DNA of 64,000 nt, taken from positions 1-64,000 of the forward strand of contig NZ_BOMN01000098.1 in the NCBI RefSeq assembly GCF_016862215.1. The letters run 5' to 3'. This DNA is from Winogradskya humida (GTDB taxonomy: Bacteria > Actinomycetota > Actinomycetes > Mycobacteriales > Micromonosporaceae). The position numbers and the translations under genes were made by a program. Within the stretch, counting starts at the first letter, position 1. Every line of letters starts with the position of its first letter. Under the pieces are notes generated by a model. That model ran no database searches. It worked only from the letters and a program-made list of their open reading frames with translations, and had not been told where the DNA came from. Shown here piece after piece: positions 4,870 to 64,000 of the stretch.

Positions 4870-5708
4870 TCACCCGCGGCCGAGGGGGACTCCGCGGCCC
4901 AGGAGGTGAGCATGCGCAGGCCGTCGTGGGCGGGGGTGCCGGGGGCGGCGGTGAGGGCGATGAGTTGCTGGTCGGGATCGGCGGCATCGGTCAGGGTGGA
5001 CCAGTCGAGTGCGAGCTCGCCCACGACCGGATGGCGCAGCGTCTTGGTCCCCGCGGCCGACGCGCCGACGCGGTGGTCGCTCCACCATCGACGGAAATCC
5101 GGGTCCTGCACGGACAGTTCGCCCACCAGCGTTGTCAGGCGGGGATTGCGCGGGTCGCGGGCGGCCTCCATCCGCAACTGCGCGACGCATGCGCGTGCCA
5201 CGTAGTCCCAGTCGACGTACATTGCGCGGATCGCCGGGTCGGTGAACACCAAGCGGACAAAATTGCGCTCCTTCTCCGGCACCTGTGCGAAGTCGGTGAA
5301 CAGTGCGGCGGCCAGCGGATTCCAGCCGAGAATGTCCGTGCAGCGACCGAGGACCATGGCCGGGGTGCTCGTCAGGTCATCGAGCAACCGCTGCAACTGC
5401 GGCTGAACCCGCTGGGTGGCACGCCGCCGCGGCCGGGCGGCATCCTTGCCCGAGAGCTCGAAAAGATACGTACGCTCGTCGTCGCTGAGCCGCAACACCC
5501 GCGCAAGAGCGTTCAACACCGGTTCGGCGGCCTGACGACGGCCCTGCTCAAGGCGGGTGTAGTAGTCCGGGCTGATCGACGCGAGCAGAGCAACCTCTTC
5601 CCGGCGCAGACCCGCCACCCGCCGCCGCCCGCCATCGGGCAGCCCTGCCGCCGCCGGGCTCACCTCCCGCCGCCGGGCCCGCAGAAAGTCCCCGAGTTCG
5701 CTGCTCAC
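4848..5708 (-). CDS. XRE-family regulator with MmyB-like ligand domain
   Basis: 286 residues from the GTG at 5708 (VSSELGDFLRARR); an in-frame ATG at 5762 would add 18 residues but family members usually begin right at this LGDFLRARR segment. The N-terminal helix-turn-helix (about 15-75) contains GLRREEVALLASISPDYYTRLEQGR, the hallmark of this actinobacterial family. The remainder (about 95-270) matches the MmyB-like PAS-type ligand domain (GRCTDILGWNPLAAALF, FTDPAIRAMYVDWDYVAR). Members usually control a divergent enzyme gene; here the alpha/beta hydrolase gene starts 99 bases away on the other strand. Effector unknown. Confidence 0.88.
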   Translation of the reverse strand: MSSELGDFLRARRREVSPAAAGLPDGGRRRVAGLRREEVALLASISPDYYTRLEQGRRQAAEPVLNALARVLRLSDDERTYLFELSGKDAARPRRRATQRVQPQLQRLLDDLTSTPAMVLGRCTDILGWNPLAAALFTDFAQVPEKERNFVRLVFTDPAIRAMYVDWDYVARACVAQLRMEAARDPRNPRLTTLVGELSVQDPDFRRWWSDHRVGASAAGTKTLRHPVVGELALDWSTLTDAADPDQQLIALTAAPGTPAHDGLRMLTSWAAESPSAAGDQESAMR

Positions 5709-5807
5709 AGGTTCAAGTCTCGCACCGGAAAAGCATGGGGCAGGCGCCGTTGAGGGGGCCAATTCTGGCCCCTTATCGCAGCACGCAACGCCTGCGAGTG
5801 TCGAACC

Positions 5808-6752
5808 ATGAAGATCGACGTCACCTTCCCCAGCAACAACCTCGCAATCGCCGGCACCCTCTACCTGCCCGAAGCGTCCGAAGCACCCGAAATCCTAGAA
5901 GCACCGGACGCGCCGTCCACCGACCGGCTTCCCGCCGTAGTCGTCTCCCACCCCGGCGGCGGGGTGAAGGAGCAGACCGCGACCATCTATGCCGAGCGCC
6001 TGGCCCGGGCGGGCTTCGCGGCCCTGGTCTTCGACGCGGCCTACCAGGGCGAGAGCGAAGGCGAGCCACGTGGCCTGGAGAACCCGTTCCAGCGCGCCGA
6101 GGACATCAAGTCAGCCGTGAGCTTCCTGACCACCCGCGACGAGATCGACCCGGACCGTATCGGCGCCCTGGGCATCTGTGCCTCCGGCGGCTACGTCCCG
6201 TACGCCGCCCAGACCGACCTGCGGATCAAGGCCGTGGCCACGGTCAGCGGAACGGACATGGGCGCGGTGATGCGCGAGGGCCTCGGCCGCACCCAGACCC
6301 CGGAGACGCTGCGTACGATCCTCGAGCTCACCGCCGCCGCCCGCACCGCCGAAGCACACGGTGAGGGCGTCCAGCGCCAGGAATGGATCACGGACGCGGT
6401 GGACGCCGAAACCTACGAGTACTACCGCACGCCGCGCGGTTATCACCCCCGTGCGGTGCAGCCCTGGCCGGTGCGCAGCCTCGATCAGCTCATCCAGTAC
6501 GACTCGTACGCCCTGATCCGCCTCATTGCACCCCGCCCGCTCCTCATGATCATCGGCTCGGACGCGAACACGGCCTACCTCAGCCGCGAAGCGATCGCAG
6601 CGGCAGCCGAACCCAAGGAACTCTTCGTCATCGACGGCGCCACGCACATCTCGCTCTACGACAAGGACGAGCACGTCACTCAGGCCGTCGCCAAGCTGGT
6701 CCCGTTCTTCGCCGCGCTGCGTCAGGACGCCGAGCCGGTGGCCGCGCTCTAA
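5808..6752 (+). CDS. Alpha/beta hydrolase (dienelactone hydrolase-like, YcjY type)
   Basis: 314 residues, no signal peptide, probably cytoplasmic. The oxyanion region is VSHPGGGVKEQTA and the nucleophile elbow is LGICASGGY with Cys124 in the nucleophile position, as in dienelactone hydrolases and YcjY-like proteins. The late His is likely in GATHISLYD and the acid in MIIGSDANTAY. Such enzymes cleave or rearrange esters and lactones; the substrate cannot be read. Residues 22-37 hold a small repeat-like insert (EASEAPEILEAPDAP). The XRE gene is divergent and is the likely regulator. The TAA stop overlaps the ATP-grasp gene by 4 bases. Confidence 0.85.
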   Translation: MKIDVTFPSNNLAIAGTLYLPEASEAPEILEAPDAPSTDRLPAVVVSHPGGGVKEQTATIYAERLARAGFAALVFDAAYQGESEGEPRGLENPFQRAEDIKSAVSFLTTRDEIDPDRIGALGICASGGYVPYAAQTDLRIKAVATVSGTDMGAVMREGLGRTQTPETLRTILELTAAARTAEAHGEGVQRQEWITDAVDAETYEYYRTPRGYHPRAVQPWPVRSLDQLIQYDSYALIRLIAPRPLLMIIGSDANTAYLSREAIAAAAEPKELFVIDGATHISLYDKDEHVTQAVAKLVPFFAALRQDAEPVAAL

Positions 6753-7624
6753 AGGCTCCGGATCCGATCGCGGATGGCCCCGGCGACGAGGCCGACCGCT
6801 TCGGGAACGGTGTCGCTCTGATACGCAGGCTCAAACACCTCGACCTCGATCACTTCCGTCCCGGCTGCGATGTCGATCCGGGCATAAAGCGGAAGATCAA
6901 ATCCCGTTTTCCGTACGGCCTCAAGTGCCCGTTCACCCAAAGCGATCTCCGCCGGGCTGGCCTCCGCGGCGGTGATCGCCGGCCCGTACTCCCCGCCCAC
7001 ATATTCCCCGCCGGGCGCCAGAATCGGCCCCTTGTGGAACGCGTACGCGTACGTCCCGTTCAAGAAGAACAACCCGTTCTCGCCGTACGAGATCACATGC
7101 TCGTTCGCGGGCTGAACCATGACGGTCTTCCCGGCGGCAACAATCCGGCCGGCCAGTGTGAGCGCCTCAAGATCACCGGCCGCGAACAACCCGGTATCCC
7201 GCGACCCGGCGGAAATGGACGGCTTGACCACGATCCGCCCCTGCCCCGAGCGCGACACGGCCACTTCCGCCTCCTCAACCGTCTCGCAGAAGACGGTGGG
7301 CACACACGGCAGACCATGTCCTTCAAGATCGCGCAGGTACTTTTTGTCGATGTTCCACCGGATCAGCTCGGGCGCGTTGAGAATCCGCGTCAACCCCGCC
7401 GCCCGATCCAGCCAAGCCATGAACTCCGCGAACCGCTCCGAGTAGTCCCAAGGCGACCGGACAACCACCAGGTCGTACGCACTCCAGTCAACCGACCCGT
7501 CATGCCAGACCGGCGCATCAACCCGAAGCCCGTCCCCCCGCAGCGCATCGAGCAGGGGTCCGGTGTCCACATCGCGACCGTGCAGGGCAACGCTGTCCGT
7601 GGTGAGCAGTCCGAGATAAGCCAC
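6749..7624 (-). CDS. ATP-grasp ligase-like protein
   Basis: 291 residues. The fold is suggested by an N-terminal Rossmann-like part (YDLVVVRSPWDY), ATP-binding phrases RIVVKPSISAGSRDTG and VMVQPAN, and the metal/ATP segment LYARIDI....VIEVEVFEPAYQSD near the C-terminus. These match the RimK/glutathione-synthase-like group of ATP-grasp proteins, which join an acid to an amine through an acyl phosphate. Glu in VEVFEP would bind Mg. Substrates unknown. It stands alone on its strand and overlaps the hydrolase stop tail to tail by 4 bases. Confidence 0.8.
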   Translation of the reverse strand: MAYLGLLTTDSVALHGRDVDTGPLLDALRGDGLRVDAPVWHDGSVDWSAYDLVVVRSPWDYSERFAEFMAWLDRAAGLTRILNAPELIRWNIDKKYLRDLEGHGLPCVPTVFCETVEEAEVAVSRSGQGRIVVKPSISAGSRDTGLFAAGDLEALTLAGRIVAAGKTVMVQPANEHVISYGENGLFFLNGTYAYAFHKGPILAPGGEYVGGEYGPAITAAEASPAEIALGERALEAVRKTGFDLPLYARIDIAAGTEVIEVEVFEPAYQSDTVPEAVGLVAGAIRDRIRSL

Positions 7625-7682
7625 CCGGCCAGCTTAAACTGTTGATCATCAAGCCGTTCCGCGCCCTTTATGAGCATTATTC

Positions 7683-7694
7683 GGTTAAATAACC
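7683..7694. promoter_or_regulatory. Small dyad just upstream of recC start
   Basis: GGTTA-AA-TAACC lies 3 bases before the recC GTG, in an AT-rich patch (7645-7695) that is the only likely promoter region for recCBD. It could occlude initiation, but the evidence is symmetry and position only. Confidence 0.3.
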
Positions 7695-7697
7695 CAG

Positions 7698-10600
7698 GTG
7701 CTGCGCCTCCACCGCGCCGAACGCGCCGACCGCCTCGCCGAAGCCCTGGCCACCCTCCTGCGCACACCACTCCCCGACCCCTTCACCCCAGAAATCATCA
7801 GCGTCCCCTCCCGCGGCGTAGAACGCTGGCTAACCCAACGCCTCTCCCACCACCTCGGCACAGCCCCCGCAACGTCCCGCCCCAAGGTGGTCGCCCACAA
7901 CCCGGCCGGCCACGAGAAGGCCGGACACGAGAAGGCCGACCATGAGACGGCTGGTCGTGGAGACGGGATCTGCGCGAATGTGCAGTTCCCGTCGGTGGCC
8001 GCACTGATCGACTCGATCACCGATCCCGGCGCCCGGGCGGCCCTGGACGCAGCACCCGACCCCTGGCATCCCGACCGACTGGTGTGGCACGTCCTCGACG
8101 CGATCGACCGCTCAGTTCGTCAGCCGTGGTGCGACGCCCTGGCCGCCTACCTGGCGACGGACGGCCGCCGCTACGCGACAGCCCGCCACCTGGCCACACT
8201 GTTCGACTCGTACAACCTGCACCGCCCGGACATGGTCACCGCCTGGACAGCCGGCGACGACGTCGACGGCATCGGCAAAGCCCTCCCCGACGACCTGCGC
8301 TGGCAGGCAGCCCTCTGGCGCGACCTGCGAGCCCACCTCCACACCCCGAGCCCGGCCGAACGCCTCACCGACATCTGCGAAGCCCTGCGCCACGCCCCGC
8401 AAGCAGCGTCGATGCCACCCCGGTTGTCCATTTTCGGGCTGACCCGCCTCCCCTCCGCACACGCAACGCTCCTGACCGCCCTGGCCGAACACCACGACGT
8501 CCACCTCTGGCTCCCCCATCCCTCCCCCGCCCTCTGGGACCGCCTCCGCCCCTACTCAAAACCCCGCACCCGCCTGGACGACCCCACCAAGGACCTCCCC
8601 CGCAACCCGCTGCTCGCCTCACTGGGCCGCGACGCCCGAGAACTCCAACTCACCCTCACCGCCCCACCCCACGACACCCACCACCCCGGCCCCGCCTACC
8701 CGAACACCGCCCTCGGCCGCCTCCAGCACGCAATCGCCAACGACCTCCCGCCCGGACAAACACCGGCGTCGCAGAGACCCCCATCGCAAGAACCCTCGCC
8801 GCAAGAACCACCGTCACAGCGACCGGCACAGCAGGAACCGGCGACCCAAGGACCAACGCGGCAAGAACCGATACCGCAGGGACCGGCGCGGCAAGAACCG
8901 ATGTCGCAGGGACCGGCGCCGCAGGGACCGATGTCGCAGGGACCGGCACCGCAGGGACCGGCACCGCAGGGACCGGCACCGCAGGGACCGGCCGATTTCA
9001 GTGTTCAGGTGCATGCCTGTCATGGGCCGGATCGGCAGGTGGAGGTGTTGCGGGAGGTGATCCTGCAGTTGCTGTCGCGTAGTCCCGGGCTTGAGCCGCG
9101 CGACATCCTCGTCATGTGCCCGGACATCGAGACGTTCGCGCCGCTCATCTCGGCCTCGTTCGGTCTGGGCGAGCAGGCGACGCACCCCGCGCACCGCCTC
9201 CGCGTCCGCCTGGCGGACCGGGCACTCCGGCAGGTCAATCCCCTGTTCGCCGTGCTGGCCCGCCTCCTGGAACTGGCCGAGTCGCGCGTGACGGCGGCCC
9301 AGGTCCTGGACTTCGCGAGCCTTCCCCCCGTACGCCGCAAGTTCCGGCTGGACGACGACGACCTCGACCGGATGCGTGACCTCGTGGTCGACTCCGGTGT
9401 CCGGTGGGGGTTCGACGCCGGTCACCGTGCCCGTTTCCAGCTTGACGTACGCCCGAACACCTGGGCCGCGGGCCTCGACCGGATCCTGCTGGGCGTGGCG
9501 ATGTCGGAGGAAGAACTGACCTGGCTCGGGACAGCCCTGCCGCTCGACGACGTCGACTCCAGCGATGTGGATCTCGCCGGCCGGTTGGCCGAGCTGGTCG
9601 ACCGCCTGGAGACCGTCCTGACAGTCATGACCGACGAACAACCGCTCAACGAATGGCGCGAAGTGCTCGCGGGCGCCGTCGATTCGCTCACCGAGGTGTC
9701 GGATGCCGATGCCTGGCAGAGCTCCCAGGTACGCGCGGAACTGTTCGCGCTCACCGAGAACGCGCAAAACCCGTCACTCGGTCTCGCCGACATCAGTTCA
9801 CTTCTGAGCGAGCGCCTCCGGGGCCGGCCCACGCGAGCAAACTTCCGCACCGGCGATCTGACGATGTGCACCATGGTCCCGATGCGCTCGGTGCCGCACC
9901 GGGTCGTCTGCGTGCTCGGCCTCGACGACGGCGCTTTCCCGAGGCAGGCCGGCGTCGACGGCGACGACGTGCTGGCCCGTGACCCCTGCGTGGGTGAGCG
10001 CGACCCACGCGGTGAGGACCGGCAGCTTCTGCTCGACGCGGTCATGGCAGCCACTGACACTCTTGTCATGCTCTACTCGGGTGCGGATGAGCGGACGAAC
10101 GCGCCGCGCCCGCCGTGCGTACCCCTGGATGAACTGCTTGATGTCCTCGGCCCGGACGTTGTGACCCGCCATCCGCTGCAACCGTTCGATCAACGCAACT
10201 TCACCGGTGACCCGTTCAGCTTCGACCCGACGGCGCTGGCCGGCGCGCTGGCCGCGGCCGGGGAGCGCCGGGCGCCCATGCCGTTCCTGACCGGCCCGCT
10301 GCCCCGCAACGGCCACAGCGGCCACAGCGGCCACAGCGGCCACAGCGAGACAGTCGCCCTGGACGATCTGCGCGCTTTCCTCGACCATCCCGTGCGCGCG
10401 TTTCTGCGCCGGAACCTCGGGCTCGGGTTCACCACCGGCGAGGACGAGCCGGACGACGCGCTCCCCCTCGAGCTGGACGCGCTGAGCAAATGGGCAGTCG
10501 GTGACCGGATGCTGCGCGCCCTGCTCGACGGTGCAGACCTGGAACGCTGTGTCCAAGCCGAATGGCGGCGCGGAGCCGTCCCTCCTGGCCCGCTGGGCAA

Positions 10601-60789: not shown

Positions 60790-61533
60790 ATGCGCAATCC
60801 CACGTTCCACTACATCGTGGTCGTCGATGTCGAGGGATACGGCCGCCGGCTCGTGCCCGTGCAGGCGTCGCTGCGGACCGCCATGTACGAGGTGACGGAG
60901 AACGCGTTCGAGGACGCCGGCCTGGACTGGGAGTCCGTGGTCAAGCTGGATCGCGGCGACGGGATCCTGATGCTCGTGCCGCCCACCGCCGACGGGGTCA
61001 CCCTCGCGGGGAAGTTCGTGATCGCCCTGCACGAGAGCCTGCGGGAGAAGGCCGGCTTCTTCTCCGCCGAGCATCAGATGCGGATGCGGGTCGCGCTGCA
61101 CCAGGGCACCTGCCAGCAGGACCGCAACGGCTGGGTCGGCGAGGCGATCAACACCGCGGCCCGCCTGGTCGACGCCGGCCCGCTGCGCGCGGCGCTGGCC
61201 TCGGCACCCGCGGCGACCATGGCGTTCATCGCCTCCGACGACATCTACCGCAGCGTGATCCGGCACGGCTTCCGGCACATCGACACGGCGTCGTTCGCCC
61301 CGGTCGAGATCGACATGAAGGAGCTGCAGGAGACCGCCTGGGTGCAGATCCCCGGCTACCCGCACCCGCCGCACCTCAACCCGCAGCCCGCGCCGGCGCC
61401 CGCCCCGCAACCGTCGCCCGCGGGCGGGGAGCGCAGGACGTCCGCCGGGGTGCAGTTCCACGGGCCGTTGACCTTCGGCGGCGATCAGGTGATCGGTCAC
61501 AAGACCGTGCACGGCAACGAGTATCCCCGATGA
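60790..61533 (+). CDS. Class III nucleotide-cyclase-like protein with C-terminal peptide motif
   Basis: 247 residues. Residues 5-190 have the catalytic core layout: metal-binding D13 (VVVDVEGYG) and D57 (RGDGILML), then N121 and R125 in GEAINTAARL, the transition-state Asn-x3-Arg pair. The Lys/Asp substrate-choice region is not standard (one extra residue before GDG), so the product nucleotide, if any, is uncertain. A Pro/Ala linker (about 192-212) leads to a short end, FHGPLTFGGDQVIGHKTV. This kind of domain is common in actinobacterial multi-gene signalling operons. Its stop overlaps the next gene by 4 bases (ATGA). Confidence 0.8.
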   Translation: MRNPTFHYIVVVDVEGYGRRLVPVQASLRTAMYEVTENAFEDAGLDWESVVKLDRGDGILMLVPPTADGVTLAGKFVIALHESLREKAGFFSAEHQMRMRVALHQGTCQQDRNGWVGEAINTAARLVDAGPLRAALASAPAATMAFIASDDIYRSVIRHGFRHIDTASFAPVEIDMKELQETAWVQIPGYPHPPHLNPQPAPAPAPQPSPAGGERRTSAGVQFHGPLTFGGDQVIGHKTVHGNEYPR

Positions 61534-63863
61534 CAGCACCCGCACCACCGCCGCAGCAGCAGGCACCGGCGATCCCACAACCGCAGGGCCCCGCGCCGCA
61601 GAAACAGCAGGACCCCACCCCGGGCCCGGTCAAGCCGGCCGGGAACGCCGCGAAACCCACCTCGGGCGCGCAGAAGCCCGCGGGAGGGCCGCCGAAGGAC
61701 GCGGCCGCCGGTAAGGAGGCCGCCAAAGACGGGGCCGCCGTCCCGCAGGCCGGGCCGCAGCCGGAGCCGATCTCCACGACCGGTCTGGAGGACCAGGAGA
61801 AGCGGGGCGCGCTGCCCGAGGCCGCCGACGACCGGCTGGAGGAGCGGCTGCGCAAGGCCGCGTACAACCTCTCCGGTGACCTGGTCGCCGGTGACAAGCT
61901 CGTGATGATGCTCGGCGGCAAGGAGAAGGCGCCGATGCAGCCGCTCGGTGCCCAGCTCACCGAGCCGGTGCGGCACGCGTTCGTCGAGCCCGCGGACTGG
62001 CCGAAGATCCGCGGTGTCCTCTTCGACCAGCGCCTCGTGGTGCTGCGCGCCGATCCGCATCAGGGCAAGGTCGCGGCCGCGATCCGGATGCTGCAGGCGG
62101 TGCCGGAGCGCCCGATCTACAACCTGGACAACGACGTCGACCTGGCCCGGCTCACGACGCTGCTGGACGACGCCAACAACGACAACCCGCTGCCGCCCGG
62201 CGCCGGCTTCCTGCTGTGCGAGCCACAGCGGTGGGGCGAGGTGCAGGGCTGGATGCTGCAGCAGCTCGAAGCCGTGATGAAACGCATCGACGCCCGGATG
62301 GTGCTCACCCTCGGCACGGACGCCCCGCTCGCCGACGAGGACATCCGCGAGCACGTGGTGGCGCTGGGCCAGGCCCGCCCGCACGCCGAGATCCTTGCCA
62401 GCCACCTCGCGTGGCGGCTGGAGGACCGGGAGCTCGCGCAGCGGCTGCTCGCGGAGAAGAGCGTCGCCGAGCTGGCCGATGAGACCTTCACGGGGGTGAT
62501 GTCGCTGAAGGTGGCGGCGGACCTCGCGGTGATCATCAGCCAGGAGCTGAGCGGCGCGACGGTCGACGTGGACCGGGTCCGCGCCCGGGTGGCCGAGCGA
62601 ACCATCGAGGACTTCGACATCTGGTTCGGCGGGCTGGACGAGGTCCCGGACCGGTGCATGGCGATCGCGCTGGCGGCGTTGAACGGGCTGCCCTACGAGA
62701 TCGTGGTCCGCGCCGCCGATGCCCTGGCCGACCGGCTCGACGGGCCGCCCCTGGTCGTCGGTGGTGACACGGTGCATGTCGTGGCGCCGTGGCGGGACCC
62801 GTTCCGGCGTACCAGGCGGGAGCGGTTGCGGCTGTTGCGGGCCCAGGTACGCACGACGACCGTGCGCGGCCCGTTCGGCACCGGTCCGGCGGAGGTCCTC
62901 GAGTACGCCGACACCAGCTATCCCCTCCAGATCCTCACCCACGTGTGGCGGGAATTCGACATTCAGCGGGTCCTGCTGGACTGGCTGCGCGATCTGGCGG
63001 TCAGCTCGAACAAAGATGTGCGCGCCTGGTCCGGCACCGCGCTGGGCGTCCTGTCCTGCCAGGCGTTCGACTTCGTCCACGCCGAGGCCCTGCGCCCGAT
63101 GTCGATCGACGACGACAGCATCCAGAACCGCGAGGTCGTCGCGTACGCCCTGCGCGTACCCGCCGATGATCCGAAGCTGCGCCCGCTCGTGACCGCCGTG
63201 ATCACCGGCCTGTACACCAACCGCGACTCCCCGTTCGGCCAGGCCACGGCGGCGAGGGCGTACGGCATCAGCCTCGGCCGGCAGAGCGCCCCGGACGCGC
63301 TGACCGCCCTCGACCGGCTCGCCACCATCGACCACATCGCGATCGCGTCGGCCATCGCGGGCAGCCTCGGCGATCTGATCCTGCAGAACGAGCAGGACAA
63401 CGCACCCCTGGTGCTGGACCGGATCTCCGGCTGGCTCAACGACCGCCGCCGGGCACTGACCGGCCAGTTCGCCTTCCTCCAGCTGGCCCGGTCGCTCACC
63501 ACCGAGGTCACGATGGGTGACCCGGCGGTCAAGACGTCCTGGCCGACGCTGCTGATGTTCGCCGATCAGCGGCTGCCACTGCGCCACGGCCTGATCGGCA
63601 TGTGGCGCCACGTCCTGCACTCGGGGACGTTCCCGCTCGCCACCGAGCAGGCGCTGGACACGTGGGCCGCGCTGGCCGAGGCGGACGGCGACGTGCAGGT
63701 CTCGTTCTGCCGGATGCTCGCCGCCGCCGCCGAACAGCTCCGCACCGGCAACCTGATCCGGCGCCACGTGACCCGCTGGCGGGCCGTCGACAACCTGCAA
63801 CCCAAACCCCGGACGGCGTACGCGGTCGAGGCCGCGCTCGATGCGAGGAGTGAGCCCCGGTGA
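61530..63863 (+). CDS. Large protein with disordered N-terminus, degenerate P-loop and helical repeats
   Basis: 777 residues from the ATG at 61530 (ATGA overlap). Residues 1-95 are Pro/Ala/Gln/Lys-rich and disordered. At 116-123 is GDLVAGDK, like GDQVIGHK in the partner protein. About 165-235 looks like an NTPase first strand and loop: RLVVLRADPHQGKVAAAIRML, where the P-loop GxxxxGK(S/T) has lost its first Gly and its Ser/Thr, so it is probably an inactive STAND-like module; FLLCEP could be a degenerate Walker B. About 300-460 is helical, and 500-777 is HEAT-like. Likely a scaffold or sensor working with the cyclase-like protein. GTGA overlap with the next gene. Confidence 0.65.
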   Translation: MTAPAPPPQQQAPAIPQPQGPAPQKQQDPTPGPVKPAGNAAKPTSGAQKPAGGPPKDAAAGKEAAKDGAAVPQAGPQPEPISTTGLEDQEKRGALPEAADDRLEERLRKAAYNLSGDLVAGDKLVMMLGGKEKAPMQPLGAQLTEPVRHAFVEPADWPKIRGVLFDQRLVVLRADPHQGKVAAAIRMLQAVPERPIYNLDNDVDLARLTTLLDDANNDNPLPPGAGFLLCEPQRWGEVQGWMLQQLEAVMKRIDARMVLTLGTDAPLADEDIREHVVALGQARPHAEILASHLAWRLEDRELAQRLLAEKSVAELADETFTGVMSLKVAADLAVIISQELSGATVDVDRVRARVAERTIEDFDIWFGGLDEVPDRCMAIALAALNGLPYEIVVRAADALADRLDGPPLVVGGDTVHVVAPWRDPFRRTRRERLRLLRAQVRTTTVRGPFGTGPAEVLEYADTSYPLQILTHVWREFDIQRVLLDWLRDLAVSSNKDVRAWSGTALGVLSCQAFDFVHAEALRPMSIDDDSIQNREVVAYALRVPADDPKLRPLVTAVITGLYTNRDSPFGQATAARAYGISLGRQSAPDALTALDRLATIDHIAIASAIAGSLGDLILQNEQDNAPLVLDRISGWLNDRRRALTGQFAFLQLARSLTTEVTMGDPAVKTSWPTLLMFADQRLPLRHGLIGMWRHVLHSGTFPLATEQALDTWAALAEADGDVQVSFCRMLAAAAEQLRTGNLIRRHVTRWRAVDNLQPKPRTAYAVEAALDARSEPR

Positions 63864-64000
63864 CCCATCCCCTTTCCATCATCCTCAGTGTCACCCCCGT
63901 GCAGCGGGGCATCTTCGACCGCAGCAAGGCGACCCTGCCGAACGTCGGCGTGGTCTACTCGACCGCAGCCGGGCAGGTCGCGTACTTCGACGGGCGACCG
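63860..64000 (+). CDS. Third gene of the cyclase operon, cut by window end
   Basis: Starts at a GTG overlapping the previous stop by 4 bases. The 47 visible residues (VTHPLSIILSVTPVQRGIFDRSKATLPNVGVVYSTAAGQVAYFDGRP...) show a hydrophobic N-terminus of moderate length and no recognised domain. The coupling makes it a core member of the operon. Confidence 0.55.
   Translation, partial: MTHPLSIILSVTPVQRGIFDRSKATLPNVGVVYSTAAGQVAYFDGRP

What the first reader, a model, noticed from the sequence alone, without database searches (positions are those of the whole stretch)
60790..64000. Tightly coupled cyclase-like / degenerate-NTPase / unknown operon: candidate undescribed signalling or conflict system
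Three genes in a row overlap by exactly 4 bases (ATGA, GTGA), so they are made together. Gene 1 has intact class III cyclase residues (D13, D57, N121, R125) but a non-standard substrate-choice region. Gene 2 has a long disordered head, a P-loop that has lost its first Gly and Ser/Thr, and HEAT-like helices. Gene 3 is cut off. Established: multicellular bacteria often carry multi-gene NTP-dependent conflict systems with inactive STAND modules and cyclase-like proteins. Inference: this is one of them, with a nucleotide signal and an effector beyond the edge.
Basis: partly seen in the sequence, partly recalled or inferred. Interest (0 to 1): 0.7.

Follow-up and report, generated by a model that had tools for sequence, protein, structure and literature searches.

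The report
Amyloid-like switch coupled to nucleotide cyclase
This bacterial gene cluster looks like a receptor that switches on a second-messenger enzyme through a matching prion-like tag carried by both proteins, a wiring resembling fungal and bacterial immune signalling but with a nucleotide signal as its output.

Summary
In detail: three genes overlap by 4 bases, gene 1 is a class III nucleotidyl cyclase, gene 2 has a degenerate P-loop and HEAT-like helices. Beyond the window the operon continues: gene 3 (SPFH-like + vWA), vWA, PP2C, kinase-like, and a Crp-family cyclic-nucleotide sensor. Related modules occur in 41 of 67 genomes of the genus. Key finding: the end of gene 1 and the N-terminal region of gene 2 carry a matching short Gly/Asn-rich tag specific to cognate pairs (34 non-redundant pairs, 45.1 vs 22.3, 0 of 5000 permutations; of five control comparisons four show nothing, one p about 0.03). 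This is the layout of HET-S/NWD2-type amyloid NLR signalosomes. The effector slot is exchangeable: cyclase in 52 of 66 loci, TIR in 10, at least 6 changes on a quick receptor tree. A Crp-type gene accompanies 45 of 52 cyclase slots and 0 of 13 others. Proposed mechanism: receptor, tag templating, cyclase clustering, cyclic nucleotide, Crp response. Amyloid formation, catalysis and any defence role are untested. New variant of a known kind.

The parts
60790..61533 (+). gene 1: class III nucleotidyl cyclase with C-terminal tag, 247 aa
   Evidence: ORF; family profile matches solved class III cyclases, E 4e-7 over residues 7-131
60808..61182 (+). cyclase domain of gene 1 (residues 7-131) with D13, D57, N121, R125
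   Evidence: D13 in 53, D57 in 52, R125 in 51 and N121 in 17 of 54 cyclase-slot domains
61456..61515 (+). effector-side tag of gene 1 (residues 223-242, core GDQVIGHKTV)
   Evidence: aligned with the gene 2 tag, shuffled-tail p 0.003 (300 shuffles); cognate pairing across the family
61530..63863 (+). gene 2: receptor-like protein, disordered head + tag + degenerate P-loop domain (nSTAND3-like, weak) + HEAT-like helices, 777 aa
61875..61904 (+). receptor-side tag of gene 2 (residues 116-125, GDLVAGDKLV)
62046..62072 (+). degenerate P-loop of gene 2 (residues 173-181)
   Evidence: sequence; family alignment
63860..64000 (+). start of gene 3 (581 aa, continues to L005:5605): SPFH/Band_7-like N-part and vWA-like C-part
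   Evidence: Band_7 in 2 of 28 relatives, best 0.003; PDB 2rpb E 0.0012. Further genes beyond the window (L005 coordinate + 60000): vWA 5631-6305, PP2C 6295-7296, kinase-like 7293-8828, Crp 8833-9519

Best explanation
The operon encodes an NLR-like signalosome. Gene 2 is the receptor: HEAT-like helices, a degenerate STAND-type P-loop domain, and a short Gly/Asn-rich tag in front of that domain. Gene 1 is its effector: a class III nucleotidyl cyclase with the matching tag at its C-terminus. When gene 2 senses its trigger and assembles, its tag templates the tag of gene 1 (probably a cross-beta, amyloid-like assembly as in HET-S/NWD2 and the BASS systems). This brings cyclase domains together; class III cyclases work as dimers. 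The cyclic nucleotide is read by the Crp-family regulator at the end of the operon. The SPFH-like gene 3 probably supplies a membrane scaffold, and the vWA/PP2C/kinase-like genes set the threshold. Shown by sequence comparison: the domains, cognate tag pairing, effector exchange, the cyclase-Crp link and conserved metal aspartates. Inferred: amyloid fold, direction of signalling, catalysis, trigger, membrane role, and a conflict or stress role.
For: Cognate tags: 34 non-redundant pairs (<40% receptor identity), slot tail vs gene 2 head 45.1 cognate vs 22.3 non-cognate, best partner in 22 of 34, 0 of 5000 permutations. Same at <30% identity (11 pairs, 0 of 20000) and in non-cyclase slots alone (11 pairs, 0 of 5000). 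Controls: tail vs gene 2 301-470, vs gene 2 last 170, vs third gene first 170 and last 170 show no excess. Tails are enriched in Asn 3.4x and Gly 2.3x, Leu down to 0.11x. Effector exchange: 52 cyclase, 8 TIR, 2 TIR+cyclase, 3 other, 1 none called, of 66 loci; Pfam TIR_2 in all 4 TIR-type slot proteins scanned; the TIR label needs at least 6 changes on the receptor tree. Crp neighbour: 45 of 52 cyclase slots, 0 of 13 others, Fisher 5e-9; non-redundant 20 of 24 vs 0 of 10, p 8e-6; tree-independent pairs 5.9 for, 0.0 against, of 7, median p 0.03. Of 52 Crp-like genes among 1017 called, 50 lie in these windows, one in the duplicate record L083 and one beside gene 2 in L097. cNMP_binding + HTH_Crp_2 in the window's Crp and 10 of 10 others scanned. 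In 49 readable Crp proteins the phosphate cassette keeps its Arg in 49 and Glu in 45 (Asp in 4). Metal aspartates D13 53 and D57 52 of 54; the exceptions are the two TIR fusions, which have no Crp.
Against: No experiment. Per pair the tag match is not universal: 36 of 60 pairs have shuffled-tail p<0.01 and 39 p<0.05 (part of the misses come from a mislocated P-loop). One control, slot residues 41-90 vs gene 2 head, reaches 154 of 5000 (p about 0.03). The window tag itself is short and modest (6 identities of 10), and in the unmasked test its best alignment lay in Pro/Ala linkers. The transition-state Asn is kept in only 17 of 54, so catalysis in many relatives may be altered or lost; it is kept in the window. 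7 of 52 cyclase loci have no Crp called nearby. The STAND assignment is weak (nSTAND3 4e-4 at best, 6 of 20), as is the SPFH assignment of gene 3. The two structure predictions (2 sequences each) were unusable (pLDDT 41 and 37). Loci are related, so Fisher p-values overstate independence; the tree-corrected p is about 0.03 (range 0.016-0.125).
Confidence: 0.55

Rival explanations
1. The matching tags mediate an ordinary, non-amyloid contact (strand pairing) that holds cyclase and NTPase in a standing complex; there is no prion-like templating.
For: The tags are short, and no amyloid test is available here; cognate matching fits any paired contact.
Against: Position (effector C-terminus, receptor N-terminal region), adjacent genes and TIR as an alternative effector agree with the published description of BASS signalosomes (PMC7889193 passages); several loci have nearly identical tags on both sides (L065, L075, L120), which a heterotypic interface does not need.
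Confidence: 0.25
2. The module is a developmental or nutrient cyclic-nucleotide circuit (cyclase + Crp) of filamentous actinobacteria with no role in conflict.
For: Crp neighbours are ordinary regulators with HTH; kinase, PP2C and vWA genes are general signalling parts.
Against: Patchy presence (41 of 67 genomes of the genus), strong divergence (to 16% identity), repeated exchange with TIR, and a Lamassu-type operon beside it.
Confidence: 0.25
3. Gene 1 is a pseudo-cyclase: a nucleotide-binding or dimerising adaptor without catalysis.
For: N121 is lost in 37 of 54 relatives; the LmuA-fused cousins and the PP2C-fused cousin have lost D13 and N121.
Against: Metal aspartates are kept in 53 and 52 of 54 while the proteins diverge to about 27-30% identity; Crp accompanies the unfused cyclases (45 of 52) and neither TIR fusion. 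The window copy keeps all four residues.
Confidence: 0.15
4. A MoxR-vWA iSTAND or VMAP ternary conflict system as described by Kaur et al. (PMC7159879).
For: Degenerate STAND-like NTPase, vWA genes, cyclase.
Against: No MoxR match in the eight downstream proteins scanned, five of the operon and three of the convergent strand; the cyclase is a separate gene.
Confidence: 0.05

Closest known systems
Bacterial amyloid signalling (BASS) NLR signalosomes (Dyrka et al. 2020; known here through passages of PMC7889193 and PMC8086366)
   Same: Adjacent or overlapping two-gene layout, shared short tag at effector C-terminus and receptor N-terminus, TIR as one effector, multicellular actinobacteria.
   Different: The effector in the window is a class III cyclase; the word 'cyclase' does not occur in PMC7889193 or PMC12261475. 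The receptor is a degenerate, weakly nSTAND3-like HEAT type. A third SPFH-like gene and a Crp sensor go with the module. Amyloid formation untested.
HET-S/NWD2 fungal prion-NLR pair (largely recalled; related passages)
   Same: Overall architecture and the proposed templating.
   Different: Different domains and organism; no homology tested.
Pycsar (PMC11224242 passages)
   Same: Class III cyclase plus a cyclic-nucleotide-binding protein.
   Different: No PADLOC match of gene 1 at E<=10; the sensor has a Crp-type HTH, not a TIR or TM domain; an NLR-like partner is present.
MoxR-vWA ternary systems and GAP1-N2 systems (Kaur et al. 2020, PMC7159879: passages and sections 29, 31, 33)
   Same: vWA, PP2C and kinase genes together in actinobacteria (GAP1-N2 third theme); cNMP cyclases and degenerate STAND modules occur in some of these systems.
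   Different: No MoxR, GAP1 or GTPase Pfam match in the eight downstream proteins scanned nor in genes 1 and 2.

Membership tests
Class III nucleotidyl cyclases | Profile match to solved members over the catalytic domain | tested here: met
   3mr7 E 4e-7, 5d0g 5e-7, Ma1120 2e-6, with the family profile
Class III nucleotidyl cyclases | Two metal aspartates, transition-state Asn and Arg | tested here: met
   All four in the window protein; family: D13 53, D57 52, R125 51, N121 17 of 54
Class III nucleotidyl cyclases | Enzymatic activity | not testable with these tools
   needs an assay
BASS amyloid NLR signalosomes | Adjacent effector and receptor genes share a tag (effector C-terminus, receptor N-terminal region) | tested here: met
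BASS amyloid NLR signalosomes | Receptor with STAND/NLR NTPase and superstructure repeats | tested here: inconclusive
   nSTAND3 weak in 6 of 20, HEAT_2 in 11 of 20 at E<=1; P-loop degenerate
BASS amyloid NLR signalosomes | Tag belongs to one of the ten published BASS families | not tested
BASS amyloid NLR signalosomes | Tag forms self-propagating amyloid | not testable with these tools
   needs fibril assays
Pycsar | PycC-type cyclase | tested here: not met
   no PADLOC hit for gene 1 at E<=10; the library does hold a PycC model (listed)
Pycsar | Sensor is CNBD with TIR or TM domain | tested here: not met
   Neighbour is CNBD + HTH_Crp_2
MoxR-vWA ternary systems (iSTAND/VMAP) | MoxR AAA+ gene in the operon | tested here: not met
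   no match in the eight downstream proteins scanned with Pfam; relatives not scanned for MoxR
TerY-P phosphorylation triad (recalled name; presence of its models in the library not checked) | vWA, PP2C and kinase match TerY-P models | tested here: inconclusive
   no PADLOC hit for the vWA and PP2C proteins at E<=1; the kinase-like protein matches only MkoA weakly
Crp/Fnr regulators (gene L005:8833-9519) | cNMP_binding + HTH_Crp_2 | tested here: met
   2e-16 and 2e-13 (on a slightly longer reading frame)

The most novel reading that the evidence does not exclude
A prion-like, all-or-none switch gates second-messenger synthesis: NLR-like receptors in multicellular actinobacteria template an amyloid tag on a class III cyclase, and the cyclic nucleotide made by the clustered enzyme drives a dedicated Crp regulator. 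The same receptor family swaps this output for a TIR effector in other lineages, so one amyloid chassis serves either a transcriptional response or TIR-type (probably NAD-depleting) cell death.
Probability: 0.45. Interest if true: 0.9.

Novelty: new variant of a known kind. Interest (0 to 1): 0.74.

Why it matters
[quoted passage not shown] A version with a diffusible product and a dedicated transcription factor makes it directly testable: one can measure a nucleotide and a promoter instead of cell death. It would join three fields (prion-type NLR signalling, cyclic nucleotides, actinobacterial conflict systems), and it supplies dozens of divergent cognate tag pairs (64, 34 below 40% receptor identity) for studying amyloid specificity. 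Repeated exchange of cyclase and TIR on one receptor family would show that the tag is a true plug-in interface.

Tried and rejected
Rejected: an ordinary metabolic operon (downstream genes are vWA, PP2C, kinase-like and Crp). Not filed as a MoxR-vWA ternary system (no MoxR match) or Pycsar (no PycC match, sensor has HTH). TerY-P: no model match, but whether the library holds its models was not checked.

Led nowhere: Pfam, PADLOC and NCBIfam with the three window proteins alone. The search for related loci in genome contigs gave one near-identical locus only (L038, Winogradskya consettensis, 97%). Plasmid tblastn of gene 2: no match. Paper searches around amyloid/NLR/cyclase/Crp and TerY/vWA/PP2C/Band 7 showed no description of this module in the entries listed; several of these searches matched many more papers than were listed. 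The primary BASS paper (J Mol Biol 2020) was not looked up or read. The Swarozyc preprint PMC13174449 (passages) is unrelated.

Weak points: the best local alignment for the window pair and some others fell in Pro/Ala linkers (window rank 3), so I masked linkers. The regular expression that located the P-loop failed for 4 of 64 pairs and mislocated some others; one search uses fixed ranges and agrees. One control reaches 154 of 5000. In one search the label 'vWA' on third genes is unreliable, because the profile had absorbed SPFH-like sequences; only the stand-alone genes of about 220 aa should be read as vWA. My gene caller missed the slot gene of L097: read directly, it is a cyclase with a matching tag, and the 521-aa opposite-strand gene called there is Crp-like; I left it as 'none' in the counts. 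'Other' in L119 looks by eye like a transposase, so 0 of 13 could be read as 0 of 12; the windows of L107 and L119 are cut short by contig ends (4 and 3 genes). The receptor tree is a quick one with some long branches. MoxR was not sought in relatives.
Full report
1. What is there. Gene 1 (60790-61533, 247 aa), gene 2 (61530-63863, 777 aa) and gene 3 (from 63860) overlap by 4 bases each. The window is bases 1-64000 of an 85,659-base contig, so the operon can be read on. It continues with gene 3 (581 aa), a vWA protein (224 aa, VWA_2 2e-6), a PP2C phosphatase (333 aa, 2e-20), a kinase-like protein (511 aa; Kdo 0.002 and SnoaL_2 0.015, both below the curated cut-offs) and a Crp-family regulator (228 aa; cNMP_binding 2e-16, HTH_Crp_2 2e-13, scanned on a slightly longer frame). 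The relative L038 (Winogradskya consettensis, 97% identical gene 2) has the same order. The source is thus an Actinoplanes-like organism (inference).

2. Domains. Gene 1 is missed by Pfam, PADLOC and NCBIfam, but a 15-member profile finds solved class III cyclases (E 4e-7). Gene 2 belongs to a very divergent family (16-61% identity to the window among 19 others): a disordered Pro/Ala head, a short variable segment, a P-loop domain whose Walker A is degenerate, then helices. Of 20 members scanned at E<=1, 11 hit HEAT_2 and 6 hit nSTAND3 weakly; the family profile's only PDB hit below 0.001 is an artificial alphaREP (HEAT-like, recalled) protein (4e-4). Gene 3 combines an N-part resembling SPFH/Band_7 (2 of 28 relatives, best 0.003; PDB 2rpb 0.0012, a stomatin-type domain by my recall) with a vWA-like C-part. 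In the 28-row alignment only 5 rows (L005, L054, L057, L059, L074) carry the full vWA-like C-part.

3. Distribution. Gene 2 homologues: 41 of 67 genomes of the genus, own genome included; 14 of 60 in a mixed sample with a single-sequence query; 9 of 396 across the phylum, own genome included, with only 2 candidates scored in each genome listed, so probably an undercount. Gene 1 homologues: 31 of 60. The window's own genome has two modules. Neighbourhoods came; genes were called by a codon-usage script.

4. The tag. The C-terminus of the gene directly upstream (the slot gene) and the head of gene 2 carry a short Gly/Asn-rich sequence that differs greatly between loci but tends to agree within a locus. 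Examples: GGGTVHGTQNNISGNRISGGFHLGG / GGGTVRGDQNNIAGNQISGDVFLGG in L075; APDNSGQVAATVHGGMHQ / APDNSGQVASTVYGGMHQ in L120; GGPAAGRDVNYH / GGPSAGRDVNIY in L065; window GDQVIGHKTV / GDLVAGDKLV. Tests: 64 pairs, cognate 55.7 vs 33.2, permutation maximum 38.5 in 20000. With linkers masked: 60 pairs 37.8 vs 19.2; 31 pairs below 40% receptor identity 36.1 vs 18.5; 11 pairs below 30% 36.3 vs 17.2; each 0 of 20000; single pairs: 36 of 60 at shuffled-tail p<0.01, 39 at p<0.05. With controls, 34 pairs: tail vs gene 2 head 45.1 vs 22.3 (best partner in 22 of 34, 0 of 5000); tail vs gene 2 residues 301-470, 1583 of 5000; vs gene 2 last 170, 746; slot residues 41-90 vs gene 2 head, 154; tail vs third gene first 170, 4390; vs third gene last 170, 3510. 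So the strong signal is confined to these two regions. The tail is rich in Asn (3.4x) and Gly (2.3x) and nearly free of Leu, Trp and Cys. [quoted passage not shown] PMC8086366, passages).

5. The slot is exchangeable. Of 66 loci (duplicate L083 dropped, near-duplicate L038 kept), the slot holds a cyclase in 52, TIR in 8, TIR fused to a degenerate cyclase in 2, something else in 3 (a BTAD regulator in L067, a 99-aa protein with apparent membrane helices in L061, a transposase-like gene in L119), and none called in 1 (L097, where a cyclase with a matching tag was missed by my caller) (TIR by a profile that I built from seven members). Pfam confirms TIR_2 in the four TIR-type slot proteins scanned and BTAD in L067. 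The tag is kept in the non-cyclase slots: 11 pairs, 41.5 vs 24.1, 0 of 5000. On a quick tree of 62 gene 2 proteins the slot label needs 8 changes, and starred branches force at least 6 for TIR.

6. The cyclase goes with a cyclic-nucleotide sensor. A Crp-family gene lies among the surrounding genes (up to three upstream of the slot, up to eight downstream of gene 2) in 45 of 52 cyclase loci and in 0 of 13 others (Fisher 5e-9); below 40% identity 20 of 24 vs 0 of 10 (8e-6), below 30% 9 of 9 vs 0 of 2 (0.018); tree-independent pairs: 5.9 in favour, 0.0 against, of 7 (median p 0.03, range 0.016-0.125). Of the 52 Crp-like genes among 1017 called, 50 lie in these windows, one in the duplicate L083 and one beside gene 2 in L097. 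Ten of ten further Crp neighbours scanned have cNMP_binding and HTH_Crp_2. Of 49 Crp proteins readable at the phosphate-binding cassette, 49 keep Arg and 45 Glu (4 Asp). The metal aspartates D13 and D57 are kept in 53 and 52 of 54 cyclase-slot domains, R125 in 51, but N121 in only 17. D57 is missing only in the two TIR fusions, which have no Crp. The seven cyclase loci without a Crp called are L056, L057, L059, L062, L066, L074 (at a contig end) and L118.

7. Reading. The most economical mechanism: gene 2 senses and assembles; its tag templates the tag of the cyclase; clustered cyclase makes a cyclic nucleotide; Crp responds. That cyclases can gain activity on going from monomer to dimer is stated in PMC11224242 (passage). 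The SPFH-like protein would place the complex at the membrane, and vWA/PP2C/kinase would tune it; these three genes are found together in 11 of 66 loci (L005, L038, L054-L060, L084, L086; in L057 and L058 partly or wholly on the other strand), so they are an add-on. Amyloid fold, catalysis, nucleotide identity and biological trigger are not shown. My two structure predictions were unusable.

8. Known or new. In the entries listed by the paper searches I saw no description of a cyclase-Crp-SPFH module with NLR-type tags. Beyond listings I saw passages of PMC7889193, PMC12261475, PMC8086366, PMC8195603, PMC10907252, PMC11224242 and PMC13174449, and the outline, passages and sections 29, 31 and 33 of PMC7159879. 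The primary BASS paper was not read, so overlap with its supplementary lists cannot be excluded. I file it as a new variant of a known kind: it is laid out like a BASS signalosome, but membership is not claimed, since the motif families and amyloid formation were not tested.

Noticed in passing
L005:9516-15487, minus strand (window coordinate + 60000, beyond the window): A convergent Lamassu-type operon (PADLOC LmuA 8e-81, LmuB 4e-171, and a 231-aa gene) whose LmuA carries a C-terminal cyclase-like domain related to gene 1, with D13 and N121 lost, next to a second kinase-like gene. A literature search for it showed no such fusion in the six entries listed.
   Followed up: partly
L068:8396-13863: In another genome a gene 1 homologue without a gene 2 called in the locus lies directly beside a LmuA-cyclase/LmuB operon of the same kind.
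   Followed up: no
L054:4305-5723: A PP2C phosphatase fused to a degenerate cyclase-like domain lies directly upstream of the module.
   Followed up: no
L006:7807-8520 (contig C60 of the window's genome): Paralogue of gene 1 (85% DNA identity) with no gene 2 called in the locus.
   Followed up: partly
L058:3704-4819 and the slot gene of L087: TIR domain fused to a degenerate cyclase domain: an apparent intermediate between the two effector types.
   Followed up: partly
L099, L101-L104: Two Crp-family genes instead of one stand near the cyclase.
   Followed up: no
L098-L106, L108, L109, L110, L112-L114, L116, L118 downstream of the third gene: One or two further genes of roughly 330-490 aa recur after the third gene in many of these loci (not in L100); unidentified.
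   Followed up: no
54 cyclase-slot domains: The transition-state Asn of class III cyclases is replaced, mostly by Val, Asp or Ile, in 37 of 54 domains although both metal aspartates and the Arg are nearly always kept; possible unusual chemistry.
   Followed up: no
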